Source: Bradyrhizobium sp. AUGA SZCCT0176 (GTDB lineage Bacteria; Pseudomonadota; Alphaproteobacteria; Rhizobiales; Xanthobacteraceae). From it: a stretch of 64,000 nucleotides of DNA. The position numbers and the translations under genes were made by a program. Positions 1-31,590 of the stretch are shown here, piece by piece (within the stretch, counting starts at the first letter, position 1; each line of letters opens with the position of its first letter). Location: contig NZ_JAFCMB010000017.1 of assembly GCF_018130145.1 (NCBI RefSeq), positions 62,001-126,000 of the forward strand, given 5' to 3'. A model generated the notes under the pieces. It was not told where the DNA came from and did no database searches. It saw only the letters and a list, made by a program, of their open reading frames with translations.

Positions 1-2
1 TC

Positions 3-1031
3 GTTCAGCGTAACGTCACGTGTGATAATGACGTCAGCATTCTGGTCGCGCGGATTTACGATCGGCTGCGCACGCCGTTCGATTGCAACGGCCATCGCCT
101 CTCCAGCGACGCCAGCATCGGCGTCGCAGTCGCGCCGCGTCACGGCTCCGATCTGTTTGCGCTGCTGAAGAGCGCTGATCTGGCGATGTATGCGGCGAAG
201 GCGGCGGGCCGCCGGACCTATCGCTTCTTCGAACCGACCATGGAAAAGCAGGCCAACCATCGCCGCGAGCTCGAGAGCGATATGCGCGCGGCGCTGGTCG
301 ATGGCGGATTCGAACTGCACTACCAGCCGCTGGTCGATTTGCGCAACGACGAGGTCAGGGGGTGCGAAGCGCTGCTGCGCTGGCGGCATCCGCTGCGCGG
401 CATGGTTTCGCCCGCCGATTTCATTCCCGTGGCCGAGGAGACCGGCCTGATCGAGGAGATCGGACAGTGGGTGCTGCGGACCGCCTGCGCCGAAGCGACC
501 ACCTGGCCCGCGCATGTGCGCGTCGCCGTCAACGTCTCGCCGGTCCAGTTCCGCTCGCAGTCGCTGTCACTGAAGGTCGCCGCCGTACTCGCCGACACCG
601 GGCTCGATCCGCGCCGGCTGGAGCTTGAGATCACCGAGGCGGTCTTGATCGCGGACGATGACGCCGCGCTTGTGGCGCTAAATCAATTGCGCGCGCTCGG
701 GGTTCACATCGCGCTCGACGATTTCGGAACCGGCTATTCCTCGCTGCAATATCTGCAGCGCTTCCCGTTCGACAAGATCAAGATCGACCGCAGCTTCGTC
801 AAGGAAGTCACCTGCAATTCGAGTTCGGCCTCCATCATCAAGGCGGTGGTGAGCATCGCGGCCGACCGCAACATGATCACGACGGCCGAAGGCGTCGAGA
901 CCTTGCAGCAGCGCGAAACCGTGCAGAATCTGGGCTGCACCCAGATGCAGGGATACCTGTTCAGCGCGGCGCGCCCGGCGCAGGAAATCCGCGCGCTGCT
1001 GGCCGCGTGCCCGGCCGCGGATGCGGCGTAA
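3..1031 (+). CDS. GGDEF-EAL protein (c-di-GMP phosphodiesterase), 5' end missing
   Basis: The reading frame is open from the left edge, so the N-terminus lies outside the window; 342 residues are visible. The first ~75 are the end of a GGDEF domain (ASIGVAVAP and the ADLAMYAAK block). An EAL domain follows with its motifs intact: EALLRWRHP, ELEITEAVL, the DDFGTGYSSL metal loop, the KIDRSFV lysine/aspartate and the AEGVET glutamate, ending with QGYLFSAARP. From the family, this domain hydrolyses cyclic di-GMP to pGpG in the cytoplasm. Whether the GGDEF half is active cannot be seen. It converges with the histidine kinase on the opposite strand, whose end lies 9 bp away. Confidence 0.9.
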   Translation, partial: VQRNVTCDNDVSILVARIYDRLRTPFDCNGHRLSSDASIGVAVAPRHGSDLFALLKSADLAMYAAKAAGRRTYRFFEPTMEKQANHRRELESDMRAALVDGGFELHYQPLVDLRNDEVRGCEALLRWRHPLRGMVSPADFIPVAEETGLIEEIGQWVLRTACAEATTWPAHVRVAVNVSPVQFRSQSLSLKVAAVLADTGLDPRRLELEITEAVLIADDDAALVALNQLRALGVHIALDDFGTGYSSLQYLQRFPFDKIKIDRSFVKEVTCNSSSASIIKAVVSIAADRNMITTAEGVETLQQRETVQNLGCTQMQGYLFSAARPAQEIRALLAACPAADAA

Positions 1032-17747: not shown

Positions 17748-17760
17748 GGCATCATCACTA

Positions 17761-17815
17761 ATGGTTATCATTGTTATGAATAGAGATAAGATACCAAAAT
17801 GATGCTGATAAGTCT
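17761..17815. promoter_or_regulatory. Candidate LysR control region
   Basis: The divergent gap is AT-rich for this genome. TTATC at 17765-17769 faces GATAA at 17785-17789 (15 bases between), and a third TTATC on the minus strand lies within 17802-17812. Repeated half-sites of this kind are expected of a LysR tetramer, but the match is short and unproven. Confidence 0.3.
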
Positions 17816-17853
17816 AGGTATGGGGACGCAAACGCACACCAGGGAGAACCATC

Positions 17854-18282
17854 ATGCCGCTCATCACCGTCACCTATTCGAGCTTCCGCAAGGCGCCTTC
17901 ATTGAAGGCCGAAATCGCCACCGCCGTCAGTGATCTCACTGCGCGAATCCTGCGCAAGGATCCCAGGGTCACAGCGGTGATCGTCCGCGCGGTCGACGCC
18001 GCGGACTGGTTCGCCGGCGGAAAGTCGCTGGCCGAACAGAGCCTCGCCAGCTTCTGGCTCGACGTCCATGTCAGCGAGGGCACCAACACCAAGGACGAGA
18101 AGGCCGCCTATCTCGCCGCGGTGTTCCAGCGCATGGGCGAACTGCTCGGGCCGCTGCACCACGAGAGCTACGCGCATGTCGACGAGGTCAAGGGCGATGC
18201 TTACGGCTTTGGCGGGTTGACGCAGGAGCGGCGCTACATCGCCGGCAAGCTCGAGGTGCCGCCACAGCAGGAGGCGGCGTGA
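17854..18282 (+). CDS. Tautomerase-family protein
   Basis: 142 residues starting MPLITVTYSS, so removal of the initiator Met exposes the N-terminal proline that is the catalytic base of the 4-oxalocrotonate tautomerase superfamily. The length is about twice a 4-OT subunit, as in two-unit fused members; the second half (FWLDVHVSEGTNTKDEKAAYLAAVFQRMGELLG) has the same layout. Substrate unknown; dehalogenase or aromatic-degradation roles occur in relatives. AGGGAGAACC before the ATG is a good ribosome binding site. A divergent LysR gene probably regulates it. Confidence 0.85.
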   Translation: MPLITVTYSSFRKAPSLKAEIATAVSDLTARILRKDPRVTAVIVRAVDAADWFAGGKSLAEQSLASFWLDVHVSEGTNTKDEKAAYLAAVFQRMGELLGPLHHESYAHVDEVKGDAYGFGGLTQERRYIAGKLEVPPQQEAA

Positions 18283-18289
18283 ACCCATA

Positions 18290-18379
18290 GCGTTTTCGAG
18301 CGAAGTGGGTACCGGTTCGCATAGCAATCAAGTTTACGCAGATTGCGTAGACTTATCTGCGGTAGAAAACGCGTCAAAA
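18290..18379. repeat. GCGTTTTC dispersed repeat, family B, copy 1 (expanded)
   Basis: Outer arms GCGTTTTC and GAAAACGC with the family core GAGCGAAGTGGGTACCGGTT. Compared with the copies at 31591, 51200 and 51908, this one carries an insertion of about 40 bases between core and right arm. It sits between the tautomerase and lipB ends. Confidence 0.85.
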
Positions 18380-18390
18380 ATAAAACCGTC

Positions 18391-19119
18391 TTAGACAGTC
18401 GTTTCCGGCAGGCGGGCCTTGGTCGCGCCGAACACGTCCTCAAAGGCCTGCCGGAGCGCGACATCGACGTCTTCCATGGTCACGGGCAGTCCGAGATCGA
18501 CCAGCGAGGTGACGCCGTATCTGGCATCGGCGACGCCGCAGGGGATGATCGCGGAAAAATGCGACAGCTCCGGCTCGACATTGATGGCGATGCCATGGAA
18601 CGAGACCCAGCGCCGCAGCCGCACGCCGATCGCCGCGATCTTGTCCTCATGGCCGGGTCCCTTGTCCGGCCTGTTGACCCAGACCCCGACGCGGTCCTCT
18701 CGGCGTTCGCCGCGCACGTTGAAGGCGGCCAGCGTGCGGATGATCCATTCCTCCAGGCCGGCGACATAGGCCCGCACGTCCGGCCGCCGCCGCTTCAAAT
18801 CGAGCATCACATAGGCCACCCGCTGGCCGGGGCCGTGATAGGTGAGCTGGCCGCCGCGCCCGGTCTCATACATTGGAAAGCGCGGGTCCAGGAGATCGCC
18901 GGCCTTGCCGCTGGTTCCGGACGTGTAGAGCGGCGGATGTTCCAACAGCCACACCAGCTCGGGCGCTTGCCCGGCCGCGATCGCGGCCGCCCGGGCTTCC
19001 ATCTCGGCCACGGCGTCGGGGTAGGGCACCGCTTTGGCCGCAATCCGCCATTCGACATCGCTGCCATCAGGGGCTTGCGCGAAGGTCGTCAAATCAAGGC
19101 TTTGGCGGTCATTAACCAT
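18391..19119 (-). CDS. lipB: Octanoyltransferase (lipoate biosynthesis)
   Basis: 242 residues, normal for alphaproteobacteria. LipB hallmarks are intact: [25 protein letters not shown], the lysine in [10 protein letters not shown] (K160) and the catalytic cysteine in IIPCGV (C194). It moves the octanoyl chain from acyl carrier protein to the apo-E2/GcvH lysine, the first step of protein lipoylation. LipA is not in the window. It is divergent from the FliN-like gene, separated by 74 bp. Confidence 0.95.
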
Positions 19120-19193
19120 TGGCTAACCATAACGTGGTCAGGTGAAACCACCCAATTTAGTCCAAGATCTAGTCCAAGTTTGGCGGTTTCGTA

Positions 19194-19436
19194 GTGGCCA
19201 CCCTCGATAAAGTCAGCGTCGATCTCATGGTGGTGCTCGGCACCACCACGATGCCCATCCACCAGGTGATGCGGCTTTCCCGCGGCGCCATCATCGAACT
19301 GGACGCCACCGAGGCGGACGAGGTCAAGATCCTCGCCAACAACCTTCCGGTGGCTTCCGGCGTGGTCCTGGTCGATCGCAACCGGATCGCGGTCGAAGTC
19401 AAGCAAATGCTGCCGAAATTACCGGGTGTTAGGTAG
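19194..19436 (+). CDS. Single-domain FliN/SpoA-type protein
   Basis: 80 residues with a GTG start. The whole protein is one SpoA (surface presentation of antigens/FliN) domain: VDLMVVLGTTTMPIHQVMRLSRGAIIELDATEADEVKILANNLPVASGVVLVDRNRIAVEV. FliN forms the C-ring of the flagellar switch. This copy stands alone beside lipB, without other flagellar genes, and lacks the N-terminal extension that many FliN proteins have. It could be a true FliN at a detached locus or a paralogue; the sequence cannot tell. Confidence 0.85.
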   Translation: MATLDKVSVDLMVVLGTTTMPIHQVMRLSRGAIIELDATEADEVKILANNLPVASGVVLVDRNRIAVEVKQMLPKLPGVR

Positions 19437-19534
19437 TTAATCGGTCGCAAAACCGCCTTGTCCCTCCATCTCTGATTTGTTACATCGGCGCCGTTGATCC
19501 GGCAGGCCTTAAATCCTTCCAGCCGGTATCCCAA

Positions 19535-19619
19535 GCGCTCGTGGCGGAATTGGTAGACGCGCTGCCTTGAGGTGGCAGTGAGTAAAATCGTGGGGGTTCG
19601 AGTCCCTCCGAGCGCACCA
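19535..19619 (+). tRNA. tRNA-Leu(GAG)
   Basis: 85 bases including the encoded CCA. The acceptor stem GCGCTCG pairs with CGAGCGC; the anticodon arm CTGCC-TTGAGGT-GGCAG gives anticodon GAG (reads CUC/CUU); a variable arm typical of class II tRNA lies at about 19577-19592; the T arm is GGGGGTTCGAGTCCCTC. The D arm carries GGTAGACGC. Its 3' end is duplicated at 29771-29787, marking an integration site. Confidence 0.95.
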
Positions 19620-19620
19620 C
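19604..19620. other. Left attachment site candidate (tRNA 3' end)
   Basis: CCCTCCGAGCGCACCAC covers the T-arm end, acceptor strand and CCA of tRNA-Leu(GAG). The same 17 bases, with one mismatch (T for the second C of CCA), recur at 29771-29787 in the same orientation. tRNA 3' ends are the usual targets of tyrosine integrases, which rebuild the tRNA on one side. Confidence 0.6.
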
Positions 19621-19819: not shown

Positions 19820-21955
19820 CTAGGGAAGGACGATCTGGTCGAAGTTTTCGATCGCGCCGCCGCCAGCGGATTCGAAGGCTTCATCGGTGCGCGTGGGCCG
19901 CCGTCTTGGCCTTCGCCCGGCGGGGCCAGCCAGCGGATCCGCGTTCGAAAGCGGACGTTCTTTGGCGCCGTTCGCGTCGGCAAAGAAGAACCGAAGGCCG
20001 GTCGCATCCTCGATTTCTGTAACGCGGCGCTGATAGGTCATGTAGGCGCCGAGCGGCAATTCCCGCACCGCCTCATCGAGGTCGGTGACGTCGATCAGAT
20101 TTTCCTGCGACAGCAGATAAGCGGTGGCGAAAAGCTGGCCATCGGGAGCGATGCCTGCGGCAATTTTCCAGAATTCGAGCGGGATTCTGTGGCCGCGATA
20201 TTTCGGATCGGAGTCCGAAAAGATCGGGCCGGTGAATACCTTAAGCGACAGATCATCGTCCGGATTCACATGTTCCAGAATGTAGTCTTCGAGGCCTGCC
20301 CACAGCCTTGAATCTTCTCCGATGTTCGTTGCCTTACCTTGGTTGAAGATGTCGCGCTGCGGCACGCAATTGGTGAACACGCAGGTGCCGTTGGCGGAGC
20401 GTACCGCTTCTTTCACCTTGTCGCCGTATTCCAAATCCTCGCGGCGGGTGAGGTGACCGCGATCCAGCTTGTTGCGGCGATAGTAGGTGTTGTCGATCTG
20501 GTGCTCGCGGTCGATCCTTGGATCGACCAGCCAATCGTCGGTACGTCCCGTGAGTTTGAAGCGGCCGGCTGCGGACAAGGTGGCCGCGGAGAAAAACGCA
20601 AGCCGGCGCTTCATGTTCATGACAACGCTAAAGTGCTCGTATTTGAGTTCGATCTGGGACTTGTTCTCCAGGAGCGGGGCGGCATTTCCAGCAATAGAAC
20701 CGTCGAGCCTTGGCAGGAAAACCTTGAAGTTGCCCAGCTTGGGGTCGTAGCCCTTGAGGTGCTTTCCCGTGAATGTCCGGTCAGCCGGCGCGTCGATCAC
20801 GTTGCCACGCTCGTCGCGCGTACCCTTTGGCTTGCTTGCTTCCGCGCCGAACGCTTCCACGCCGCTGCCGCCAAGCCGTACCTCGCCTGCATCGTTGATC
20901 TCAAGATGCACCGTAACGCTACGGCTCATGGCCGCCTCCTGTGGCTTGAGGTTGACGCCGCCGGCTGAGGGGGCTGGCCGAGGCGCGATGATGGGCTTGA
21001 TGAGTTCGTGATGGGGCAGCGCATCGCGCAGGGTCTGCACAATACGGGAGACGCGGACACCTTCATTGGCGACCCATTTGATGTCATCTTCCTTGTCGGT
21101 ATTTGGGTTGAAATCGCGACCGAGCACGGTCTGGATCTCGCCGTTTCGGCGCACGGGTACTCCGCTGTGGTGCAGGGCGACAACAAGCCAGTCATTGCTG
21201 AATACCGGAGAACCCGAAGAGCCCGACAAAGTGTCTGTGGAATACCAGATGAAGTCGTCGGTACGGCGCAGCAGCTGGTTTTCGCGCACGCAGACCTGCT
21301 TCAGCTGGCCTGCGGGGTGTTGCACGATGGTAAGCCATTCCCCTTCTGCGACTTTGCCTGTCACATCGATCAGCGCCAGGCTGCCGAATGTGTCGAGCGC
21401 CGTTGCGTGCGTAACATCGCGCGCCTCCACTGCCACGACGCTGAAGTCTAGCTTCTTGGATGTGAAGAACAGGTCATCCGGCTTGAGCCTGAATCGAACA
21501 GGCGTCAATTCACGTCCGTCGAGGCCGCGCTCATAGCGAAACTGTGCTTCAGCGGTACGCGCGGTCTGCGCATCTGGAAAGACGTGATTGTTGGTGATGA
21601 GTACGCGCGGGGCAATCAGGAAGCCGGTCGCGTAGCCTCCGCCCAAGGTTTCGAGACGAATGCGGCAGACCGAGCGGGCCGCGCTCACGCCCTTTTCGAG
21701 GTAGTTGATGTCCTGCAGCTCGTTGCCATTGATGATGCGCTCAAACGTTTCTTCGAGTTCGCGGTCGCTCAACTCGCCGGCCTGCTGGGTGTCCAGGAAA
21801 TTGCGGCGCTCACGCAGCACATTGTCAGGAGCGACATCCCGCGGCTTGGCGTCGCGGGACGCCACTATGGCGCCCATGTCGAGTCCTTGCGCACGAGCGC
21901 GAGTGGATTCGATTACCTGCAGCAATAGCGGAGGGATCGATCCCATGGCCCGCAT
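19820..21955 (-). CDS. V8/trypsin-like protease fused to a NucA-type DNA/RNA endonuclease
   Basis: 711 residues, no signal peptide, so probably cytoplasmic. Residues ~90-310 form a chymotrypsin-fold protease: His124 in LITNNHVF, Asp170 in KKLDFSVV, Ser247 in SGSSGSPVFS, closest in style to V8/glutamyl endopeptidases. Residues ~390-680 form a DNA/RNA non-specific endonuclease: the DRGH motif (catalytic His501), FTNCVPQRDIFNQG (metal-ligand Asn538) and a helix with Glu556. The tail (~680-711) is low-complexity. NucA-family enzymes are usually secreted; an internal one tied to a protease suggests a controlled toxic effector, for example a nuclease freed or activated by cleavage. That is inference. 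It is the island gene nearest tRNA-Leu, and a 408-bp gap separates it from the retron RT. Confidence 0.85.
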   Translation of the reverse strand: MRAMGSIPPLLLQVIESTRARAQGLDMGAIVASRDAKPRDVAPDNVLRERRNFLDTQQAGELSDRELEETFERIINGNELQDINYLEKGVSAARSVCRIRLETLGGGYATGFLIAPRVLITNNHVFPDAQTARTAEAQFRYERGLDGRELTPVRFRLKPDDLFFTSKKLDFSVVAVEARDVTHATALDTFGSLALIDVTGKVAEGEWLTIVQHPAGQLKQVCVRENQLLRRTDDFIWYSTDTLSGSSGSPVFSNDWLVVALHHSGVPVRRNGEIQTVLGRDFNPNTDKEDDIKWVANEGVRVSRIVQTLRDALPHHELIKPIIAPRPAPSAGGVNLKPQEAAMSRSVTVHLEINDAGEVRLGGSGVEAFGAEASKPKGTRDERGNVIDAPADRTFTGKHLKGYDPKLGNFKVFLPRLDGSIAGNAAPLLENKSQIELKYEHFSVVMNMKRRLAFFSAATLSAAGRFKLTGRTDDWLVDPRIDREHQIDNTYYRRNKLDRGHLTRREDLEYGDKVKEAVRSANGTCVFTNCVPQRDIFNQGKATNIGEDSRLWAGLEDYILEHVNPDDDLSLKVFTGPIFSDSDPKYRGHRIPLEFWKIAAGIAPDGQLFATAYLLSQENLIDVTDLDEAVRELPLGAYMTYQRRVTEIEDATGLRFFFADANGAKERPLSNADPLAGPAGRRPRRRPTRTDEAFESAGGGAIENFDQIVLP

Positions 21956-22363: not shown

Positions 22364-24187
22364 TCAACGCTTCCACCATCGCCAGAAGTAGAGAAACAGC
22401 ATCGCGCCGGCGACCACGGCGCCGCCAGGCCTGATTGCGAGCGCGACGATCACTGCCAGCAGGATCACCAGCGCCGTGACGTACCACGGCTGTCTCTTTT
22501 TGGGCGTCGCCGGCCCCGCCGTGGGAGCCGCTGGCGGGCCGGCCGCGCGCGGCGCGCCCCACGGCGATGGGGTGACGTTGGGCGGGCGTGACAGGCCGGG
22601 CGTTGCGGTGCGCGCTTGTGCGGCCCGCTTCTTTTCTTCCTGTCGCGCCAGCGCAACCAACACCGGGTCCGGCGCTGGCGGCAGCTGCTCTGCGGGATTC
22701 CATTGCCGGCCGGGCGGTGTCTGGCCGGCGCTCGCGGCCTTGCGGAATGCGGCGCGGGTCGGGCGCCGTTCGGAGCGGGTGGGCGCGTACTGCGCGGCGA
22801 GGCGCTGCGCTCGCTGCAGCAAGGGCGTGCCACTCCCTGGATCGACCATCATGGCGAAATGGCCGAAGCCGAGCAGCGACCGGATCACGTCCTTGCCGGG
22901 GCCGAAGTGCTTGCCCGCGGGCCCGTGGCACTCGACCTGCTGCAGCACGGCGCGGTAACGGCGCAGCAGGTCGCGCGGCACGGTCACGGCCTCATTGACG
23001 GTGAGGCCGGTGACCTCCTGGCGCGTCGAGCGCCGCATCACGCGCGTCTTGTCCGGATGGACCTTGAACCCTTCGGTCTCGACAATGCCGTGCACCGCCT
23101 TGAGCAAGGTCCCGATCTTCTTCACCGCTTCGCCCGAGCCGGAGAAGGTCAGATCGTCGGCGTAGCGGCTGTAGACAAAATTGAGTGTGCGCGCGAGCCC
23201 CATGAGGCGCCGGTCGAGCTTGCGGCAGATCAGGTTGGTGATCGCCGGGCTCGTCGGCGCGCCCTGCGGCAGCAGCCGCGGGCCGTCGGCGATGAAGTGG
23301 CGCTCGCCGTCGAGCGTCACTTCATCGACAACAGGCTCGGTGCACAACAGCGCGAGCGGGATCGCGACCGCTTCAGCATAGCCCAGCGCCTCGAACAGAC
23401 CCTTGACGCGGGGGTAGGTCAGGGTCGGGAAGAAATCCTTGAGGTCGAGATTGATCACCACGTCGCGGCCGACATGGTTGCGCGCATTGGTCAGGATCGA
23501 GCGCTGTGGCGCAAAGCCGTGCGCGGCATCATGTAATGGCACTCGCGCGAGGATGTTGTCGAGCACCCAATACTGCGCGCGCTTGAGGCGCGGCATCGGC
23601 GCCGAGATCAACCGCTCGCCACCGCTCTTCTTGGGGATCGTGAAGCGCTGATAGTGATTGACCGACGCCACCTTTCTGTTGAATGCGAGGAAGCGCAGCT
23701 CGCCCAGCGGTACGCCCATCGCGTCAGCCAGCGCCTTGGCATCGGCGAGCAGCGGCAAGCCGTCGTGCAACGGCATGGTGGTCGTGCGGCTGTGAAGGCC
23801 GCGCGAGACGTCCTCGCCGAGGTAGAGCACATCGCGCTTGCGGCGTTCGTACCAGGCAAACGCCCGCGCTTGTCGCGCCTCGGCGTTGCAACGCTTCGTC
23901 TCCTGACGCCGCGCCATCGCCTCGGCCTTGCGGCGCTTATGCATTTCCTTCAGCGCCCGCTCGGGATCGCCGAGCGTGGCGTTCTGGCGCTGCAGTTCGG
24001 TGAGTTCGCGCATCGCTTCTGCACGGGCGCGGATCACGTCCGCGGCCGGCGCAGGCGCGTCTTCGCCGTCGGGCCAGAAACCGAGGCGGATCATCTCCTC
24101 GAGGATGACCTCGTCCTTTGATGACTGGCGGATGCGGTCGTAGAGTTCCTGGCGCGTCAGCGTGCCGGGAGCAACGGTCTCGTTCAC
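22364..24187 (-). CDS. Retron reverse transcriptase with N-terminal extension and two C-terminal membrane helices
   Basis: 607 residues. Retron hallmarks: NARNH at 234-238 (the NAxxH motif), LDLKDFF at 247-253 (catalytic D248), LLPQGAPTSPAITN at 305-318, YADD at 342-345, GFKVHPDKTRV at 373-383 and VTG at 392-394. It primes from and copies its own RNA to make msDNA; the structured RNA immediately upstream fits as template. About 150 residues before the RT domain are unusual, with a charged coiled-coil-like stretch (ELTELQRQNATLGDPERALK and on to ~105). After ~470 comes a Pro/Ala-rich linker, then two hydrophobic helices (568-586, 588-603), suggesting membrane attachment. The GTG/ATG choice is settled by ATG at 24187. 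Upstream on the same strand are the SWIM and WGR/HEAT genes. Confidence 0.92.
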   Translation of the reverse strand: MNETVAPGTLTRQELYDRIRQSSKDEVILEEMIRLGFWPDGEDAPAPAADVIRARAEAMRELTELQRQNATLGDPERALKEMHKRRKAEAMARRQETKRCNAEARQARAFAWYERRKRDVLYLGEDVSRGLHSRTTTMPLHDGLPLLADAKALADAMGVPLGELRFLAFNRKVASVNHYQRFTIPKKSGGERLISAPMPRLKRAQYWVLDNILARVPLHDAAHGFAPQRSILTNARNHVGRDVVINLDLKDFFPTLTYPRVKGLFEALGYAEAVAIPLALLCTEPVVDEVTLDGERHFIADGPRLLPQGAPTSPAITNLICRKLDRRLMGLARTLNFVYSRYADDLTFSGSGEAVKKIGTLLKAVHGIVETEGFKVHPDKTRVMRRSTRQEVTGLTVNEAVTVPRDLLRRYRAVLQQVECHGPAGKHFGPGKDVIRSLLGFGHFAMMVDPGSGTPLLQRAQRLAAQYAPTRSERRPTRAAFRKAASAGQTPPGRQWNPAEQLPPAPDPVLVALARQEEKKRAAQARTATPGLSRPPNVTPSPWGAPRAAGPPAAPTAGPATPKKRQPWYVTALVILLAVIVALAIRPGGAVVAGAMLFLYFWRWWKR

Positions 24188-24235
24188 GCGGCCGGCCCTC
24201 CGGTCAGGAGGACGGCGGCAGCCTTGCTGAGGGAG

Positions 24236-24473
24236 ATCGGAAAGGGCGCAGGCCGGGTTGCCTTCGTCTCATCTAAGAACTGGATCGATCCACTCGACGC
24301 CGGGGCGTCCACCCATACGCAATTGGGTTCAAAGAACCCAATCTGCGATTGCGTATGGGTGGACTGCCCCGGCCCAGTGAAGATCGGGCCAGTGACGCGT
24401 GCATAGTCATGGTGCAAGGACGGCGATACGCCGCCCGGGTTGCAAGGTCCTGACCAGCCTGCGCCCTTCCGAT
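24236..24473 (-). ncRNA. Retron ncRNA (msr-msd) candidate
   Basis: Lies between the SWIM and RT genes, in the place expected for a retron template RNA. The ends form the a1/a2 inverted repeat: GCCTGCGCCCTTCCGAT at 24457-24473 pairs with ATCGGAAAGGGCGCAGGC at 24236-24253 apart from one bulged base. After a1 (minus strand) come small hairpins GGTC-AG-GACC and GGCG-TAT-CGCC, fitting msr. Then a long hairpin occupies 24301-24371: about 30 paired bases (6 + 17 + 7) interrupted by a 1-base and a 7-base bulge, with a TTT loop, fitting msd. Exact RNA ends, the branching G and the reverse transcription stop cannot be set by eye. Confidence 0.8.
24301..24371 (-). repeat. Long msd-like hairpin
   Basis: On the minus strand the arms are CGGGGC, GTCCACCCATACGCAAT and TGGGTTC, paired with GAACCCA, ATTGCGTATGGGTGGAC and GCCCCG around a TTT loop. 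A single A and the 7 bases CGCAGAT are unpaired on the 5' side. Nothing else in the window forms so long a stem outside the dispersed repeat families. Confidence 0.9.
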
Positions 24474-24536
24474 TACAGTGATACGCGCATTGCCGTCTCC
24501 GGTTCAAGCCGGGTCTGATGGCAGCCTTCATGTCAC

Positions 24537-26204
24537 TCATGTGGCGTGTCCATCCTGGGCAACGCCCTCGACTTGCGCATGGAAGATCCGGCGCAACGCC
24601 AGCATGTGCTCGCAGGGGCCGCGCGCCATCTTGTTGTGGCCGTAGAAATGACAGCTGCATCGCGCCTCAACGAGACGGTCGTCGTCGTCGATGACGAGGC
24701 TCACCTGATCGGTACGGGCATTGTCGAGCACCGTGCCGTCGATGGCGCGAACGCCCTGGTTGCGATCAATGCTGCCGATCGTCACGAGGTTGGCGTTGAT
24801 CAGGCGGTCGGCCTTCTCCTCCTGCGGGCTCGCGAAGCGCAACTGGGCTGATGACAACGGCTCGCGCGTCAGTTCGCGCAGTCGGTAGAGCGACTTGTCG
24901 AGGTCGAACATGACGCGTCCGGCCTGGGTGTAGGCCGTCAGCGCGGCATGCACGAGCGTCTGGTCGACGCCGGTCTGCTGCGCCAGTTGAGCGGCGGTCG
25001 CCGCATGGGATTTGCCGAGCGCCGCGAAAATGCGTTGGGCGGTGTCGTTGTCGACCCTGTGGCGCGGCGCGAGCAGATCGAATTGCCCGGCGGACGACCA
25101 GTCGTTCGCTGTCCAGCCGGACAAGCCGAGCGTGAAGCGCAGACCGCCGAAATCGACCACGAAGAACGATGGCAGGCCGCTCTGAGTCAGATGGACCCGC
25201 ACCGACCGCGCCAGCGGCAGCGCCCGCCCGAGGATAGCAAGCCGCCGCCGGCCCCAGATGCGGATCTCGGCGGGGGACTTGCCGCGATAGATCGAGCGGC
25301 GGAAGGTGAGCCTGTCGTTCCACGGCTCGATGACCACCTCCACGGGCGCGTCCGGCCTCAGCACAAAGCGCAGCGAGCGCGGACCGGCCTTTTCCTTTTT
25401 CTGCGCGAGGCGGGTGAGAATATTGGCCATGTCTACCGGATGCAGGTCGAACACATGCGCCGGCAGGGTCATGGCGCTCGACACCTGCAGGAAGCCGCGC
25501 AGCCAACTGTCCGGCAGGTCGATCTTCTCCTCGCGGAAGTCGAGGTCGTCGCCGGTCTGCACCTCGAACCCGGAGGGATCGATGGTGAGCGTGGTGTCGC
25601 GATAGGAACGGATCTTCTGGAATTCGTCGTAGAGAGCGTGGCTGTAGTCGATGTTGGTGGTGCCGAACGCCATCTCGCCGAGGCTCTCGAACACGTCGTG
25701 GTCGCACGACAGCCGCCCGTAGCTCGATTCGTCGAGGCTGAAGCACTCGAAGAAGATCTCGTCCGGATGCACGGTGATAACCGGATCGAGCACGATCCAG
25801 GCGTCGCGGTTCTGCTTGTAGAGGTAGTTGAAATAGGCCTGCCGCGCCGCCCAGAACGGCTTCATGAGCCGATCGCGCTCGCGGTCGAGGCCACGGATGC
25901 GGTCCTGCAATTCCGCGATGCGCGGCTTGAGCGCGGCAGACTGCGCCGTAGCCTCGGCGAGGAAGTTGGCCTCGTTCTGCTTCAGCCACTCGAAGTAGGC
26001 GGTACGGTCGCGCGGCTTGAAGCGCAGGTCCGACACGACGACATGATGCAGTGCCGAGATCGCCTCGCGGAACGCGAGATGGCGCGCGACCTTGCCGGTG
26101 AAGAAGGTCGGCTGGCGCAGCGTATCGGGCGCGAAGGCGAACGACGACGAGGCGGCGTCGGACGAGGCACTGGTGCTGCCGAGAAATCGATATGCGAAAT
26201 TCAT
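24537..26204 (-). CDS. Winged-helix SWIM zinc-finger protein (retron-associated)
   Basis: 555 residues. Near the C-terminus is a SWIM finger, CxCx12CxH: C516, C518, C531, H533 (within CSCHFYGHNKMARGPCEH). Before it (~395-445) is a winged-helix-like segment (TAAQLAQQTGVDQTLVHAALTAYTQAGRVMFD). The first ~380 residues are unrecognised, with a charged coiled coil at ~95-130. This layout fits the WHSWIM accessory protein described for type XIII retrons; SWIM fingers bind nucleic acid or protein. Its ATG overlaps the stop of the WGR/HEAT gene by four bases (ATGA), so the two are made together. The retron RNA starts about 60 bp after its stop. Confidence 0.85.
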   Translation of the reverse strand: MNFAYRFLGSTSASSDAASSSFAFAPDTLRQPTFFTGKVARHLAFREAISALHHVVVSDLRFKPRDRTAYFEWLKQNEANFLAEATAQSAALKPRIAELQDRIRGLDRERDRLMKPFWAARQAYFNYLYKQNRDAWIVLDPVITVHPDEIFFECFSLDESSYGRLSCDHDVFESLGEMAFGTTNIDYSHALYDEFQKIRSYRDTTLTIDPSGFEVQTGDDLDFREEKIDLPDSWLRGFLQVSSAMTLPAHVFDLHPVDMANILTRLAQKKEKAGPRSLRFVLRPDAPVEVVIEPWNDRLTFRRSIYRGKSPAEIRIWGRRRLAILGRALPLARSVRVHLTQSGLPSFFVVDFGGLRFTLGLSGWTANDWSSAGQFDLLAPRHRVDNDTAQRIFAALGKSHAATAAQLAQQTGVDQTLVHAALTAYTQAGRVMFDLDKSLYRLRELTREPLSSAQLRFASPQEEKADRLINANLVTIGSIDRNQGVRAIDGTVLDNARTDQVSLVIDDDDRLVEARCSCHFYGHNKMARGPCEHMLALRRIFHAQVEGVAQDGHAT

Positions 26205-29200
26205 GCGGCGCTTCCGTTGCTTTGCGAGCCTCCGCCCGACGGCGTGCGGCCGGCGCGGGCCACGGTGACAGGCAGAGTGATATCCGGCCAGGCATGGGCT
26301 ATGTCGCGCAGGATCATCAGCGCCGGCGCCTTGTCGCGAAGGGTCACGCTAAGCGTGAAGTCGTGCAGCAACTGCGCGATATCAGCAGCGCGGTCCCTGT
26401 GCGCCAGCGCCTCGTTACGCAGTGCCGTGAAAATCCGGTCCTTGGCGATGCGCCCGCGGTTGATCTGCATCAGGATGATGCGGGCCTGGGTGAGGAACTT
26501 AGCGAAGATCGCCGCATCCGCCAGCGAATCGCCGGTTATCAGCTCGGTGACGAAGAGATGAAAGCTGCCGGAAGGGTGCTCCAGCACGCGCCCCAGCACC
26601 TCGGCGACATCGCCGTCGGCGAGGCTGCGCCGAAGCAGCAAGCGGGCGCCGTCCTGCACCGCCGGCACGGTCGAGTCCGCCATGACAGCCAGCGCCGCCG
26701 CCGGCAGCGCGTCGCTGGGCCATGCGGTGAGGCGGTTCACCGCGATCGCTCGTACATCGTCCCACTCGCTCTCGACGAGCAGCACGGCATTCTGCGGGTC
26801 GGCACGGAAGCGGGCCTCGTCGGCTGCAAACGCATGAAGCGTGAAGCGGCGCACGGCAGCCAACGAATGGTTGCCGAGGCGGGCAAGCTGGCGGACCGAG
26901 AAGCGCTGTGGGTCGCGGCTCTCCAGCAGCTTTGCGCCCATCATGCGCGCGCCGGCCGCGCGTGCCTGCAGCAGTCGCCAAAGCGTGCCGTCGTCAATGG
27001 CGGCCGCTGCCCCCGGCAGGGCATCTGCGAACAGTGTGACCATGTCGGCGGCACGGCCTTCGATCGGCTCGGCGCGGAAGAAGCCGGCCATCAGCATGTC
27101 GCGCAACCGGATGGCAAAATCGTCGTCGGTCGCCGCGAGGCGCGAGACCAGCGGCCGCGCAGCTGCTCGCAGCCCGGCATGGGCGCCCGTGGCCGCCAGC
27201 GTGATGCCGTCGCGATGATGTGCGAGGGCGGCGTCGTCGAGCCGTGCCAGCAGGATCATCGAGGCAATGCGGATTTCCGGTGCATCAGCCTGCAGGATTG
27301 CCTGCCAAAACGCTACCGGCAGGTCGCCAGGCCGCGTTGGAGTCACGGCGATGAGCTGGATGCTGGCCGCCTGCACGTCGGGACTGGCATGGCCGGTCAG
27401 GCTTTCGATCACCTCCGGTTGCAGCGGGCAGTCGCGATCGGGCCATAGCTGTGGCAGCAGCGCGAGGGCGGCAGTGAGGCCGGCGCGCAGCCCGTCGTCA
27501 AGTTCAGGCGGCAGCAGCGCGAGCCAGGCCGCGAACGCTTCCGTGGCGCGGGCGCGTTGGTCCCGCGAGGGCGCGCGGTCGCGCAACCAGCCGCGCGTCC
27601 GGCCTTGCACATGGTCGTGCGGGCTCGTCAGCGCGGTGCGTGCAAGGGCAGGGTCGGCCCACGGCCAGTCGGCGCGGTCGTCGATGGCGCGGATCGCCAG
27701 GTCGCGGAGTTCCTGCGCGGTCGCCTCGAGCAGCGCGGCGATCAACGCCGCCTCGGCCTTGCCGGCATCGATCAGCCGCCGCGCGATCGCGGCTGCGAGC
27801 GCATTGACCTCCGGATACGGCGAGGCCAGCAGGCCGCCGATCGCGGCCACGTCCATCGTATCAGGCCGTGGCGGGCCCTGCCGCAGCGCCTCGGCCGCGA
27901 AGCGCGCCGCTGCGTGATTGCGCGCCAATGTTGCGATGCGCAGCAGCCGCTGCGGCTGGGCATCCCATAGTGCGGGGAACGCTTCCTCGCGCTGTCCCGG
28001 CGCACGCACGCCGACGTGGCGATGCGTGAGCCCGTTGGGATTGAAGCGGCTGGTCTCGGCCGCTTCATGCAGCAGGTGGCTGACGCTCCAGACCCGGCTT
28101 AGTGCCTCGCTGGCAAGGGGGGTAAGTTGCCAGCGGCCGTCGATGAGGACGTGCGTGCTCCATGTTGCCGGCTTGATGCCGTCGGCGTCGGTGAAGGCAA
28201 GGAGGAGTTCGCTTGCCATCGCCGTGAAGGCGTCCTGTCCGAGCTCGGCGCGCTTGCGCAGCATGCGCCAGGCGCGCCGCTTGAAGTAGAGCAGGGTCTG
28301 GTCAGACAGCGCGATGCGCGGAGTTTCGCTCCGCAATTCCTCGCTGAGCTTCAGCGCCTGGCGCGAACCGGGCACCCAGACGCGGTCGTTATAGACGCGG
28401 TTGCGGCGGTACATCGGTGTCGCCAGCTCGAACTGCCGCGCCGTTGCGGCGAACAGCGGACCGTCGTCGGTGAGATCGGCATATTTGAACAGGCGCCGCA
28501 GCACCTGAACGTAGGGCGGGCGTGGACTCATCGCGCGCACCGCCGCGAGCAGCGCCTTGCGCGCCGCGCCGTCGGCGAGCGCGTGGTGGGCAAGAGCGAT
28601 GAGGAACTGATTGCCGAAGCCCGGATGTGCCGAGTTCGCCGCCAGCAGGGCCTGCAGCAGCCCCGCGCCGTCGCCGTTCGTCAGCGCCATCTCGATATCG
28701 CGTGTCGCCGCAGTGTCCGCGGTTCGCGGTAACGACAGGCGCGGCGGCGGTCGCCGCGCGCCCATCAGTTCGCTGGCGAGGGCATAGGCCGCGTAGTCGC
28801 GTGTCACCAAACTGACATTGACGTCGGCGCAGCTGCGTAGCAGATCGACGGCGTTCGCACCGCCACAGCGCGCCAGCGCATACACGAGGCTGTAACTTGC
28901 ATTCGCCGCGCCGATCTTCTCTGCGATGGCGGCGAGTTGAGGATAGGCGGGGGCCAGCCGGATCACGCCGAGGCGCCAGAACAGGCGGTCGCGTTCCTTG
29001 TCGGGCCACGCACTACGCGCACAGATCGCGAGCTTTTTGAGTAGCTCCGTGTCGCGTCCGTCGGCAGCGGCGCCTGTGTCGAGAACCGTCAGCGGTGGTG
29101 CGTCACCGTCGACGCGGCGATAACCGTCGTTGATCTTGGACACCACGACGCTGTCAAACAGCTTTTCGGCGTTCGAGCGGGTAACCGGAGACGAAGTCTT

Positions 29201-29356
29201 CGTTCCATCCCTTAGCGACGTGCCGCGACGGCCATATCTGAAATTGACGAGATAGCGTGCGTCGACGTCGCGTTCGAGATCGACCAGATCGACTTCATAG
29301 AGTTTGTCTGAACGGCCCTCCTTCATCCAGAGGCGAACGGAACGGACGACTTGCAT
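26201..29356 (-). CDS. WGR-domain HEAT/ARM-repeat protein (retron-associated)
   Basis: 1051 residues. The first ~80 resemble a WGR domain (VRLWMKEGRSDKLYEVDL, then YLVNFRYGRRGTSLRDGTKT and a basic helix), known from PARPs and MolR-like bacterial proteins as a nucleic-acid-binding module. The rest is helical and repetitive, Ala/Leu/Asp-rich, with HEAT/armadillo-like units (e.g. HASPDVQAASIQLIAVTPT, APEIRIASMILLARLDD, NHSLAAVRRFTLHAFAADE). In type XIII retrons an ARM-repeat protein accompanies RT and WHSWIM; this matches in order and size class. It is the first gene of the likely operon. The ATG at 29356 is preferred since the WGR begins there; an in-frame start at 29392 would add 12 residues. 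Confidence 0.85.
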   Translation of the reverse strand: MQVVRSVRLWMKEGRSDKLYEVDLVDLERDVDARYLVNFRYGRRGTSLRDGTKTSSPVTRSNAEKLFDSVVVSKINDGYRRVDGDAPPLTVLDTGAAADGRDTELLKKLAICARSAWPDKERDRLFWRLGVIRLAPAYPQLAAIAEKIGAANASYSLVYALARCGGANAVDLLRSCADVNVSLVTRDYAAYALASELMGARRPPPRLSLPRTADTAATRDIEMALTNGDGAGLLQALLAANSAHPGFGNQFLIALAHHALADGAARKALLAAVRAMSPRPPYVQVLRRLFKYADLTDDGPLFAATARQFELATPMYRRNRVYNDRVWVPGSRQALKLSEELRSETPRIALSDQTLLYFKRRAWRMLRKRAELGQDAFTAMASELLLAFTDADGIKPATWSTHVLIDGRWQLTPLASEALSRVWSVSHLLHEAAETSRFNPNGLTHRHVGVRAPGQREEAFPALWDAQPQRLLRIATLARNHAAARFAAEALRQGPPRPDTMDVAAIGGLLASPYPEVNALAAAIARRLIDAGKAEAALIAALLEATAQELRDLAIRAIDDRADWPWADPALARTALTSPHDHVQGRTRGWLRDRAPSRDQRARATEAFAAWLALLPPELDDGLRAGLTAALALLPQLWPDRDCPLQPEVIESLTGHASPDVQAASIQLIAVTPTRPGDLPVAFWQAILQADAPEIRIASMILLARLDDAALAHHRDGITLAATGAHAGLRAAARPLVSRLAATDDDFAIRLRDMLMAGFFRAEPIEGRAADMVTLFADALPGAAAAIDDGTLWRLLQARAAGARMMGAKLLESRDPQRFSVRQLARLGNHSLAAVRRFTLHAFAADEARFRADPQNAVLLVESEWDDVRAIAVNRLTAWPSDALPAAALAVMADSTVPAVQDGARLLLRRSLADGDVAEVLGRVLEHPSGSFHLFVTELITGDSLADAAIFAKFLTQARIILMQINRGRIAKDRIFTALRNEALAHRDRAADIAQLLHDFTLSVTLRDKAPALMILRDIAHAWPDITLPVTVARAGRTPSGGGSQSNGSAA

Positions 29357-29392: not shown

Positions 29393-29994
29393 GCCGGGCG
29401 TGCCGCGTCAATGGCGGTTGGTGCAACGGAATATAGCGAAGCTGCAGGTTGCAAGCTGTGGAATGGCGACGTCGGTGGCCCATCGGCGATTTGCCGGGGC
29501 CGATCGACGGCATCGGTTTCCAGTCGGAAGGATTTTCGCCGATCTGAACCTGAGACAATTCATATCCAGCTTCACGTCGCGCGTCGATTGCAGAGGCGAA
29601 GGCCACGATGGCGGAGCGACCAGAAAGGGGAGCTTATCCTTATTGTTTGCTAAAGTACGGAGAAGCTGAGCCAGATGATATTAAGTGTGGAAATAGACGC
29701 TTTGATTTGATAGCTACGCTGGAGCTTGGGGAGTTCGCATAAGCGATTGAAATCGCAGTGAATGCGCCCGCCCTCCGAGCGCACTACAAAATCATGCAGT
29801 TTGGGCCCAACCCAATCGATTCGGTGGAAACACGTGATTCTTCTCAGTGCCACAGTGGCGAAACCGTTGGGAATCGCCGGGGCAGGCGGAAGTAGCCTTG
29901 CTGTTACACCGTTCGCGTAAAACAACAGGGCATCGCCGGCTACCCGGTCCGATGACCGTAATTCGGCACTTCCAAATCTATCCGGGGCACGTGA
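29393..29994. other. Gap holding the right island edge; no gene seen
   Basis: The first part should carry the promoter of the retron operon reading leftward; CTATAT on the minus strand near 29429-29434 could be a -10 box but has no well-spaced -35. The right attachment repeat is at 29771-29787. A long antisense frame through the region and the next gene is not credible as a protein. Confidence 0.5.
29771..29787. other. Right attachment site candidate
   Basis: CCCTCCGAGCGCACTAC repeats the 3' end of tRNA-Leu(GAG) at 19604-19620, identical for the first 14 bases and 16 of 17 overall, in the same orientation. Only the terminal piece is present, not another tRNA. Confidence 0.6.
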
Positions 29995-30381
29995 ATGATT
30001 TTCCTGGGCTACGCCTATCGATTCGTCTCCAACTTCGTGTTCCTGGCGCTGGTCTATTTCGCCCTTAACTTCCTGGACAAATATCCGCAGCGCGCGGTGG
30101 TGGCGATCCTCGTGCTGGTTTATGCCGCCATGCATGCCGCCTCGGCGTTGCGTTCGTTTTATTTCTTTCAGCGCATCGAGCGGCTGGAGATCGAGGCGCG
30201 GCGTCTGGCCAAGGTCGCCGCCGAGGGGCCGAGCTCGGCCGCTGCCGCCGCGGCCTCGCGCAAGCAGATCGTCACCGAGGTCAGCGGGCTTCGCCACGCC
30301 GGCGAGATCAAGGCCTATATCGACCTGCTGTTCCTTGCCCTCGTCATCCTGCTCTGCATCGCCAAGATCGTGACGAACTGA
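29995..30381 (+). CDS. Conserved membrane protein of unknown function
   Basis: 128 residues. Two N-terminal membrane helices (FVSNFVFLALVYFALNFL and AVVAILVLVYAAMHAASAL), a charged helical linker (FFQRIERLEIEARRLAKVAAEG, then Ala-rich), and a C-terminal helix (AYIDLLFLALVILLCIAKIV). No enzymatic motif. It is the first chromosomal gene right of the island repeat, so its promoter region may have been altered by the insertion. Confidence 0.7.
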   Translation: MIFLGYAYRFVSNFVFLALVYFALNFLDKYPQRAVVAILVLVYAAMHAASALRSFYFFQRIERLEIEARRLAKVAAEGPSSAAAAAASRKQIVTEVSGLRHAGEIKAYIDLLFLALVILLCIAKIVTN

Positions 30382-30449
30382 ACGAAAATTCGGCGCATTT
30401 TTTTTTGACTTTCTCGATCTGCGTCGCATGGTTGGCGGCAGCTTTGCCG

Positions 30450-30521
30450 CTATGCCATGCATGCGGGAAGCGCTGCGCGGCATAGAACTTGCTCCGCGCG
30501 AAGCGCGAGTCTGCGCGGAGC
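30450..30521. repeat. Two tandem hairpins before the deacetylase-like gene
   Basis: CTATGCC (30450) pairs with GGCATAG (30479-30485); just after, GCTCCGCGC (30491-30499) pairs with GCGCGGAGC (30513-30521). The second ends a dozen bases before the ribosome binding site of the next gene, so it may affect its translation, or it may be another dispersed repeat. Confidence 0.45.
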
Positions 30522-30548
30522 GCGACAATGCGAGGAGTTACCTGTCCG

Positions 30549-31583
30549 ATGCTGGCTGTCTATTCGGATGACAACGCGCTGCACGATCCCGATCATTTCA
30601 TCTCGCGCGGCGTGAAAATCGCGGTGCGGGAATCGCCCGAGCGGGCCAACCAATTGCTGGCCGCGTTGCGCGATGGCGCGCACGAGATCCGCACGCCGCG
30701 CGACTTTGGCCGCGACGCGCTGCTCAGCGTGCACGACCCGCGCTATATCCATTTCCTCGCCAATGCCTACGACAATTGGCAGACTTTGCCGCAGCCGCGC
30801 GGCCCGTTCGTGCTGGCCAACAGCTATGCCATGCGGCAGATGAAGACGCTGCCGACAAGTTTCGAAGGCCAGCTCGGCTTCTTCCTCTCGGGCAATTCGG
30901 TGCCGATCGGCCCGCAGAGCTGGCGCGCGATCGCCTCTTCGGCGAATTGCGCGCTGGAAGCGGCTGACGCCGTGCGCAGCGGCGCGTCCGAAAGCTACGC
31001 GCTGTGCCGACCGCCCGGCCACCACGCCTATGCCGATCTGGCCGGCGGCTATTGCTACCTGAACAACTCGGCGCTCGCGGCCCAGCATCTGCGCGGCCGG
31101 TTCGCCCGCGTCGCGGTGCTCGACGTCGACGTGCACCATGGCAACGGCACGCAGGGCATCTTCTGGGAACGCGGCGACGTCCTGACCGTCTCGATCCATG
31201 GCGATCCCAATACCGGCTATCCCTGGCAGGTCGGCTATGCCGGCGAGCGCGGCGAGGGTGAGGGGTTCGGCAAGAATCTCAATCTGCCGCTGCCGCTCGG
31301 CACCACTGACGAGCCCTATCTGGCAGCCCTGGACCACGCGCTCGCAGCTATCAGGGCGTTTCAGCCGGAAGCTTGCGTCGTGGCGCTCGGCCTCGATGCA
31401 TTCGAGGAAGATTCGTCGGAAATGATGCGGGTCACCACCGCGGGCTTCGGCGCCATAGGGGCGCGGATCGGGGCGCAAAAGCTGCCCAGCGTCATTATCC
31501 AGGAAGGCGGCTATGCCGTCGACGCCCTGCGCCGCAATCTCGGCAGTTTCCTCAACGGATTCCTGTCGGCCCGCGGCGGCTGA
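30549..31583 (+). CDS. Acetylpolyamine amidohydrolase / histone-deacetylase family enzyme
   Basis: 344 residues with the class II deacetylase fold. The active-site blocks are intact: RPPGHHAYADLAGGYCYLNN (catalytic His pair), VAVLDVDVHHGNGTQ (zinc ligands Asp and His), VALGLDAFEEDSSE (third zinc ligand Asp) and the QEGGYAVDALRRN end. Bacterial members deacetylate acetylated polyamines or other small amides rather than histones; the exact substrate is not deducible. AGGAG eleven bases upstream favours the ATG at 30549; an ATG at 30528 is possible. Confidence 0.9.
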   Translation: MLAVYSDDNALHDPDHFISRGVKIAVRESPERANQLLAALRDGAHEIRTPRDFGRDALLSVHDPRYIHFLANAYDNWQTLPQPRGPFVLANSYAMRQMKTLPTSFEGQLGFFLSGNSVPIGPQSWRAIASSANCALEAADAVRSGASESYALCRPPGHHAYADLAGGYCYLNNSALAAQHLRGRFARVAVLDVDVHHGNGTQGIFWERGDVLTVSIHGDPNTGYPWQVGYAGERGEGEGFGKNLNLPLPLGTTDEPYLAALDHALAAIRAFQPEACVVALGLDAFEEDSSEMMRVTTAGFGAIGARIGAQKLPSVIIQEGGYAVDALRRNLGSFLNGFLSARGG

Positions 31584-31590
31584 GGGCAGA

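What the first reader, a model, noticed from the sequence alone, without database searches (positions are those of the whole stretch)
22364..29356. Complete type XIII-like retron: WGR/HEAT protein, WHSWIM protein, ncRNA, RT
Seen: an RT with NARNH (NAxxH), LDLKDFF, YADD and VTG; a structured RNA directly upstream; a protein with winged-helix and SWIM finger; a long HEAT/ARM-like protein; all on one strand with a 4-bp gene overlap. Known: published retron classification describes a class (type XIII as I recall it) whose accessories are ARM-repeat and WHSWIM proteins, and retrons defend against phages by abortive infection. Inference: this locus is an intact member, to my knowledge with few experimentally studied relatives.
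Basis: partly seen in the sequence, partly recalled or inferred. Interest (0 to 1): 0.92.

Follow-up and report, generated by a model that had tools for sequence, protein, structure and literature searches.

The report
Type XIII retron with hidden DNA clamp
A soil bacterium carries a complete retron, a probable virus-defence unit that copies a small RNA into DNA, and one of its helper proteins is predicted to contain a ring-clamp fold like the one that holds DNA polymerases on DNA, which suggests how this little-studied kind of retron might work.

Summary
The finding is right. Window 22364-29356 (minus strand, a Bradyrhizobium-type genome) is an intact type XIII retron: WGR/HEAT protein, SWIM protein, ncRNA, RT. 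Each protein's best PADLOC model is its type XIII one (834, 745, 595 bits). The RNA lies between SWIM and RT; 41 of 55 consensus pairs show compensatory change. It is a new member of a known kind.

Four things go beyond the finding. (1) The predicted SWIM protein contains a whole PCNA-type sliding-clamp fold (about residues 34-366; Z 19.8 over 233 of 245 PCNA residues) with a helical insert; sequence comparison does not show it. (2) The RNA core is 184-188 nt in 72 of 81 copies from several phyla, although its hairpin sequence is freely replaced. (3) Six of 73 loci carry two or three RNAs. (4) In six cyanobacterial genomes the parts lie on different contigs, yet all four are found (one RT has a stop codon). 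The RT has a predicted membrane hairpin at its end; relatives have a hydrophobic stretch or, mostly, a short hydrophobic tip.

msDNA production, phage defence and clamp function are inferred, not shown. The locus lies in a ~10.2-kb island at tRNA-Leu; a close relative has the empty site.

The parts
26201..29356 (-). WGR + HEAT-solenoid protein (WGR_XIII), 1051 aa; fastest-evolving part
   Evidence: PADLOC WGR_XIII 833.6 bits; AF2 model pLDDT 87.0, pTM 0.63; WGR Pfam hit in 23 of 36 aligned members
29117..29356 (-). WGR domain (about residues 1-80)
   Evidence: strand pattern of the model; Pfam WGR in relatives
24537..26204 (-). SWIM_XIII protein, 555 aa; slowest-evolving part
   Evidence: PADLOC SWIM_XIII 745.3 bits; alignment A2
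25107..26105 (-). predicted PCNA-type sliding-clamp fold (about residues 34-366) with a helical, probably coiled-coil, insert (about residues 68-131)
   Evidence: Foldseek PDB, VIA Z 19.8, Foldseek BFVD; no support by sequence profile
24876..25052 (-). winged-helix region (about residues 385-443)
   Evidence: weak Pfam HTH_65 and DprA_WH matches, helices in the model
24594..24692 (-). SWIM zinc finger (residues 505-537; C516, C518, C531, H533 invariant in 35 sequences)
   Evidence: Pfam PF04434; invariant columns
24239..24470 (-). ncRNA from outer arm a1 (24457-24470) to outer arm a2 (24239-24253)
   Evidence: arm positions, fold z -11.07 for 24237-24472
24261..24447 (-). conserved ncRNA core, 187 nt, from CCUUGCA (putative branch G at 24443) to CGAAGG
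   Evidence: covariance model R1, 194.9 bits, E 4.4e-52; the window is one of the sequences the model was built from
24299..24373 (-). inner (putative msd) hairpin: sequence variable, length nearly constant
22364..24187 (-). retron reverse transcriptase, 607 aa, with a conserved N-terminal extension of about 130-140 aa relative to Ec86 RT
   Evidence: PADLOC RT_XIII 595.3 bits; Ec86 match starts at residue 142 of the query and 15 of the chain
22367..22501 (-). predicted C-terminal membrane hairpin of the RT (about residues 563-607)
   Evidence: 19-residue hydropathy mean 2.54, the highest in the protein; no dedicated membrane predictor was run
19604..19620 (.). direct repeat, left end of the island, overlapping the 3' end of tRNA-Leu (19535-19619, +)
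   Evidence: blastn against the empty site in G012, sequences, tRNA
29771..29787 (.). direct repeat, right end of the island (one mismatch to the left copy)

Best explanation
An intact type XIII retron. The RT copies the inner part of the structured RNA into a hairpin DNA (msDNA) of nearly fixed length. The two accessory proteins, a clamp-fold/winged-helix/SWIM protein and a WGR/HEAT protein, are predicted DNA binders that form a complex with RT and msDNA. While the msDNA is intact they are held inactive; a phage activity that binds, cuts or displaces the msDNA would release or re-arm them, and they would then grip DNA and stop replication, killing or arresting the infected cell. Shown here: the genes, the RNA and its conserved structure and length, co-occurrence of all four parts, and (by prediction) the folds. 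Inferred: msDNA synthesis, complex formation, trigger, toxicity, phage defence, and any contact between the RT tail and the clamp or the membrane.
For: Type-specific protein models; retron RT relatives; RNA covariation; the same RNA complete in 73 of 80 related loci, and next to the RT also where the RT stands in front of WGR in Campylobacterota; all four parts found in 7 of 7 SWIM-bearing cyanobacterial genomes examined, on different contigs in 6; PCNA-type fold in the SWIM model; no catalytic domain recognised with confidence in either accessory.
Against: No experiment. The clamp fold rests on one AF2 prediction (mean pLDDT 73.7, pTM 0.66) and has no sequence-profile support. The fold search barely tested the C-terminal part of the SWIM protein (note), so a further domain there is not excluded. 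The SWIM protein has kin without an RT in Streptomyces, so its base function need not be retron-linked. In one of the scattered cyanobacterial genomes (G356) the RT has an in-frame stop at codon 63 of the match. No phage or trigger is known. The very high conservation of the SWIM protein would be unusual for a defence effector.
Confidence: 0.62

Rival explanations
1. Standard tripartite retron in which the WGR/HEAT protein alone is the toxic effector and also the trigger-facing part, while SWIM with RT-msDNA is its inhibitor.
For: WGR diverges fastest: mean identity of the best local match to the window 25.9% (44 loci) against 53.6% for SWIM (48) and 49.8% for RT (36) in loci outside Alphaproteobacteria, as expected for a part in an arms race.
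Against: No toxic domain was recognised in it; long solenoids diverge fast anyway.
Confidence: 0.3
2. Not mainly a defence system: a chromosomally kept DNA-maintenance or stress module that uses msDNA as a structural cofactor.
For: One set of all four parts in each of 7 cyanobacterial genomes examined, although on different contigs in 6 (one of the RTs has a stop codon); exceptionally conserved SWIM protein (mean column identity 66% in 35 sequences); no match among 50,697 phage records and 3 records with a match, one of them full-length, among 72,556 plasmid records.
Against: Patchy distribution (7 of 297 genomes of the order, the window's own included), location in a tRNA island with an empty site in a close relative, and membership of a family proposed as defence-linked.
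Confidence: 0.2
3. The RT is a group II intron or diversity-generating element RT and the RNA is an intron fragment or target repeat.
For: RVT_1 domain present.
Against: Retron models lead by hundreds of bits; group II maturase model far below its cut-off; retron NAxxH and VTG motifs; RNA has the retron layout. DGRs were not tested.
Confidence: 0.01
4. The locus is a decaying, inactive copy.
For: Some relatives are broken in their assemblies (RT in pieces in L006 and L019; stop codon in the RT of G356).
Against: Here all three frames are open and the invariant residues and RNA pairs are kept; Bradyrhizobium relatives hold the same site.
Confidence: 0.03

Closest known systems
Type XIII retrons (PADLOC RT_XIII / SWIM_XIII / WGR_XIII; classification of Mestre et al. 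2020, recalled, paper not held)
   Same: All three proteins; gene order WGR-SWIM-ncRNA-RT as in most of the 80 loci
   Different: Nothing that takes it out of the type. The strongly hydrophobic C-terminal stretch of the RT is shared with the usable alphaproteobacterial loci and 5 other proteobacterial ones; none of the usable loci outside Proteobacteria has it
PCNA / sliding clamps
   Same: Predicted fold of SWIM residues 34-366 matches nearly the whole PCNA chain (Z 19.8)
   Different: No sequence similarity detected; helical insert; fused to winged helix and SWIM finger; ring formation unknown
Streptomyces SWIM zinc-finger protein beside a DUF6493 protein (L093)
   Same: Homologous over most of the clamp region, winged helix and SWIM (residues 138-548; hhalign probability 99.6, E 8.4e-25)
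   Different: No RT annotated in its stretch and no ncRNA match; only 77 residues before the matched part against 137 here, so the helical insert is probably absent; its neighbour is not detectably related to WGR/HEAT
Retron Ec86 (Eco1) RT
   Same: Closest solved RT, 144.7 bits
   Different: Match covers only query residues 142-468, so the N- and C-terminal extensions have no counterpart in it; other effectors (recalled)

Membership tests
Retron | RT of the retron group | tested here: met
   PADLOC RT_XIII 595 bits; nearest solved chains are retron RTs; no tree was built
Retron | NAxxH and VTG motifs (recalled) with a YxDD active site | tested here: met
   invariant in the 36 RTs aligned (window and 35 of the 66 loci listed)
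Retron | msr-msd RNA beside the RT with outer a1/a2 arms and an inner hairpin | tested here: met
   the outer arm is the least conserved helix across phyla (76.6% of cells paired)
Retron | msDNA with a 2'-5' branch | not testable with these tools
   needs isolation of msDNA
Type XIII retron | SWIM_XIII accessory | tested here: met
   745.3 bits
Type XIII retron | WGR or HEAT-ARM accessory | tested here: met
   WGR_XIII 833.6 bits; HEAT-ARM_XIII models 31-59 bits
Type XIII retron | anti-phage activity | not testable with these tools
PCNA / sliding clamp (SWIM residues 34-366) | two-domain clamp fold | tested here: met
   in a predicted model only:
PCNA / sliding clamp (SWIM residues 34-366) | sequence similarity to PCNA | tested here: not met
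So a PCNA-like fold is claimed, not PCNA membership
PCNA / sliding clamp (SWIM residues 34-366) | ring oligomer around DNA | not testable with these tools
   no complex prediction; basic residues R46, K197, R199, R319-R321 and R327, conserved in 35 of 35 sequences, lie in or beside helices that would line the ring only if the model holds; the helix at 256-268 has none
Group II intron RT | scores above the group II maturase cut-off | tested here: not met
   60.7 bits against 300
Diversity-generating retroelement | template/variable repeat pair and DGR RT | not tested
   no search for it was made

The most novel reading that the evidence does not exclude
Type XIII retrons are clamp-based immune complexes: the SWIM protein forms a PCNA-like ring or partial ring that grips the fixed-length msDNA hairpin, the RT docks on it by a C-terminal peptide of the clamp-binding kind (or is held at the membrane by a hairpin), and freed clamps jam phage or host replication. 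Tandem ncRNAs with replaced hairpins would give one RT a set of different msDNA baits.
Probability: 0.25. Interest if true: 0.9.

Novelty: new member of a known kind. Interest (0 to 1): 0.6.

Why it matters
In the library held here, the searches for 'retron' with 'type XIII' gave one paper, which only names such a retron, and those for retron+SWIM+WGR, 'WHSWIM', and 'SWIM zinc finger'+'sliding clamp' gave none; most subscription papers are not held, so a described mechanism elsewhere is not excluded. A clamp fold in the most conserved protein, a msDNA template of locked length and co-occurrence of all four parts even when unlinked give direct tests: structure of the SWIM protein, hairpin-length changes, RT-tail deletions. 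If the clamp is real, retrons would join DNA-clamp biology and immunity in a way that I did not find in these searches.

Tried and rejected
Group II or DGR origin: group II rejected; DGR not tested. Sequence support for the clamp: looked for with hhalign, a PDB profile search and Pfam and not found. Solved relatives of the WGR/HEAT protein: HEAT solenoids and designed repeat proteins, nothing specific in the rows shown. Link of WGR/HEAT to the Streptomyces DUF6493 protein: none. Faster change of the hairpin than of the rest of the RNA: clear between the three tandem copies of L072, but not in L033 (11 of 80 against 9 of 107) nor among 12 Bradyrhizobium orthologues (10 of 80 variable columns against 15 of 107), so it is not general; L042, L053, L062 and L064 were only aligned and looked at. 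Opposite-strand matches of the RNA model at positions 55-168 are read as the self-complementary hairpin, and three weak opposite-strand matches (15-19 bits) and one in the own genome (23.1 bits) as chance. The RT tail as a universal docking device: 4 of 65 usable RTs, three of them cyanobacterial, have no tail. NUC gene 19820-21955 as a fourth part: no match among the ORFs of the DNA held for the 80 related loci. Core lengths: the set had been picked with a length limit, so the length claim rests on the motif scan without a limit and on the covariance-model matches. Paper search for retron with PCNA or sliding clamp: 877 papers hold two of the three terms and only 25 were listed; the two that hold all three name retron once each; so absence is not shown. 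Paper search for several ncRNAs or msDNAs in one retron: two papers listed, neither holding 'retron'.
Full report
WHAT IS THERE. The window lies in a 7.79-Mb genome. Its closest loci by SWIM protein are 11 Bradyrhizobium loci (91-96% identity), and two genomes listed as of the same genus hold contigs of the same length as two of these, so the genus is taken to be Bradyrhizobium. On the minus strand, in order of transcription, stand WGR/HEAT (26201-29356), SWIM (24537-26204, overlapping by 4 bp), a 349-nt gap with the RNA, and the RT (22364-24187). PADLOC gives WGR_XIII 833.6 bits, SWIM_XIII 745.3 bits and RT_XIII 595.3 bits; the next RT model has 327.5 bits. The RT's best solved relatives are retron RTs (Ec86 144.7, Ec67 128.6, Kva2 80.9 bits), with group II at 42.7 bits. 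No retron RT tree was built and DGRs were not tested.

RELATIVES. A scan of genome contigs with the SWIM protein found 248 pattern matches, 212 of them encoding a relative; the best 80 loci were kept. With the window proteins as queries (BLASTP, E 1e-5), an RT ORF lies in 68 of 80 loci and a WGR ORF in 76 of 80. Of the 12 without an RT ORF, 6 are cyanobacterial (L052, L057, L059, L061, L064, L075) and 6 are loci of Campylobacterota and Saprospiraceae cut by a contig end (L038, L044, L049, L054, L062, L066); in L049 an RT fragment was found at the contig start. In Campylobacterota (L035, L036, L043, L046) the RT stands before WGR, and the RNA stands before the RT there too. Mean identity to the window outside Alphaproteobacteria: SWIM 53.6% (48 loci), RT 49.8% (36), WGR 25.9% (44); these are best local matches and so differ in length. 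SWIM_XIII was found in 7 of 297 genomes of the order and WGR_XIII in 5 of 60 near relatives, the window's own genome counted in both, and one of the five (G031) very weak.

THE RNA. In 31 aligned RNAs RNAalifold predicts 55 pairs, 41 with two-sided compensatory change. Counting that structure gives 91.8% paired cells (shuffles 73.6%, slid versions 36.7-45.8%) and a covariation score of 0.472 (0.158 in shuffles), 0 of 500 shuffles reaching either; the structure came from the same alignment, which favours it, and the outer arm is the weakest helix (76.6%). In the window, outer arms 24457-24470 and 24239-24253 close the element, and a 4-bp helix CCUU/AAGG stands next to a conserved G (24443), the likely branch G by analogy with other retrons (recalled). 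A covariance model (R1) finds complete RNAs in 73 of the 80 loci and a cut-off one in L060; L038, L044, L049, L054, L061 and L079 have none. Of 81 complete copies in these loci 72 are 184-188 nt; 8, all from Saprospiraceae (L042, L053, L062, L066), are 206-210 nt, and one copy in L064 is 227 nt. The model was built from copies of the common length, which favours it somewhat. In a motif scan without a length limit, 48 of 61 gaps hold the two end motifs in order, and 47 of these 48 have a pair at 180-182 nt (40 at 181; the exception is L076). The spacers on either side range over 27-299 nt before the first copy and 16-226 nt after the last (50 loci). Whether other retron types hold their length as strictly was not tested.

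SEVERAL RNAs IN ONE LOCUS. Six of 73 loci have more than one copy: L033 two, L042 three, L053 two, L062 two, L064 two, L072 three. In L072 the copies differ at 35, 17 and 30 of 80 hairpin positions but at only 3, 4 and 3 of 107 others, and each still folds into a long hairpin. L033 shows no such bias (11 of 80, 9 of 107), nor do 12 Bradyrhizobium orthologues (10 of 80, 15 of 107). The window genome has one RNA; a second weak match (23.1 bits) is taken as chance.

THE SWIM PROTEIN. An AF2 model from 35 sequences (mean pLDDT 73.7, pTM 0.66) was compared with the PDB: the 50 Foldseek rows shown are PCNA-type clamps, alone or in complexes (best E 7.2e-10; 460 matches at E 0.001 or better). VIA-align gives Z 19.8, rmsd 2.8, 233 residues aligned of 245, model 35..365 against chain 1..244 for the first row; the 50 rows shown are PCNA, alone or in complexes, and 555 of 997 chains reach Z 8. 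Among viral models 29 of the 50 rows shown are named as clamps or polymerase processivity subunits; the others are unnamed, uncharacterised or otherwise labelled. Between the first helix and the next strand sits a helical, probably coiled-coil insert (helices 68-88 and 93-131), modelled with lower confidence. No sequence method supports the clamp. A Streptomyces SWIM protein with no RT annotated near it is homologous from residue 138 on, and has only 77 residues before that. The C-terminal part of the model was barely tested by the fold search.

THE RT TAIL. Of 65 usable RTs (window plus 64 loci; L006, L009, L010 and L019 dropped as broken or cut), 34 have a strongly hydrophobic stretch in the tail (19-residue mean above 1.6), 27 a tail without it and 4 no tail. 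The 34 are 29 alphaproteobacterial RTs and 5 from other Proteobacteria (L037, L045, L055, L071, L081). In the window the stretch reads as a membrane hairpin; no membrane predictor was run. Of the 27, 21 carry in their last nine residues two hydrophobic residues, any residue, two hydrophobic residues (such as WWKLF, ILDMF); 1000 rounds of shuffled tails gave 0.3 on average and at most 3, but the sequences are related, so this is not a probability. The pattern recalls clamp-binding peptides (PIP box, QLxLF; both recalled), which would fit the clamp fold; the swap with a membrane stretch points instead to the membrane. Neither is tested, and the 4 RTs without a tail show that it is not needed everywhere.

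UNLINKED RETRONS. Six cyanobacterial loci without a nearby RT, with L070 as a linked comparison, were traced to their genomes. Each of the 7 genomes has one strong RT_XIII match (630-680 bits), one SWIM, one WGR (in two pieces in G358; weaker HEAT-type matches besides) and one RNA (two in G355). In G356 the RT match has an in-frame stop at codon 63; in the other six no stop lies before the end of the RT. G361 has all parts on one contig. In the other six they lie on two to four contigs; in G357 the RT lies at 11.1-12.5 kb of an 82.6-kb contig, SWIM and RNA at 46.1-50.2 kb of a 69.4-kb contig, and WGR at 35.4-38.3 kb of a third whose length was not shown. These are draft assemblies, and some separations, as in G355 where the RT is at a contig end, may be contig breaks. 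The genomes were chosen because they have the SWIM protein. Finding all four parts each time argues that they work together.

THE ISLAND. Relative G012 lacks the locus: window 18399-19620 and 29771-31585 match G012 at 97.9% and 92.9%, and there they abut with a 17-nt overlap. The overlap is a direct repeat with one mismatch at 19604-19620 and 29771-29787, at the 3' end of tRNA-Leu. The insert is about 10.2 kb and also holds a trypsin-like/non-specific endonuclease gene (19820-21955). No integrase was noticed among its ORFs, but no dedicated search was made. Bradyrhizobium loci L005-L008 have the retron beside the same lipB neighbourhood, and L005 has it beside the same tRNA.

PAPERS. PMC11953036: one passage read, naming a type XIII retron in Variovorax by PADLOC. 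PMC12548924 and PMC12262390: searched for terms only; 'XIII' does not occur in either main text. Others were seen only as listings and abstract starts. For retron with PCNA or sliding clamp, 25 of 877 papers holding two of three terms were listed, so absence is not shown. 'WHSWIM' and 'SWIM zinc finger' with 'sliding clamp' gave no paper. The classification paper of Mestre et al. was not held and is recalled. Most subscription papers are not held.

VERDICT. A sound finding and a new member of a known kind; its value lies in the family-level features seen on the way, above all the predicted clamp.

Noticed in passing
window 19820-21955 (-): Trypsin-like peptidase fused to a DNA/RNA non-specific endonuclease, in the same island as the retron; its protease part weakly matches the protease part of type XI retron proteins (24.4 bits). 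No match in the DNA held for the 80 related loci.
   Followed up: partly
L002:457-2256 (-): A second retron-like RT in the same genome, 599 aa, whose C-terminal part looks like a Toprim domain (by eye, type I-C-like); not scanned with family models.
   Followed up: no
L003:1369-2127 (+): A short RT-like protein (252 aa, RVT_1 47.8 bits) of unknown kind in the same genome.
   Followed up: no
L093:11770-16009 (+): RT-less pair of a SWIM protein (homologue of SWIM_XIII) and a DUF6493 protein on a Streptomyces plasmid; a possible ancestor-like module.
   Followed up: partly
L079:8001-11052 (+): Type XIII-like genes where SWIM and RT are almost adjacent and no ncRNA is found in the locus.
   Followed up: no
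L042, L053, L062, L066: Saprospiraceae ncRNAs are about 20 nt longer (206-210 nt) than nearly all others but almost constant among themselves: a second length class.
   Followed up: partly
G355-G360 (cyanobacteria): Type XIII retron parts on different contigs, one set per genome; the RT of G356 has an in-frame stop.
   Followed up: partly
window 16867-18398: A second stretch (LysR-type gene and a small ORF) in which window and relative G012 do not align although both sides do.
   Followed up: no
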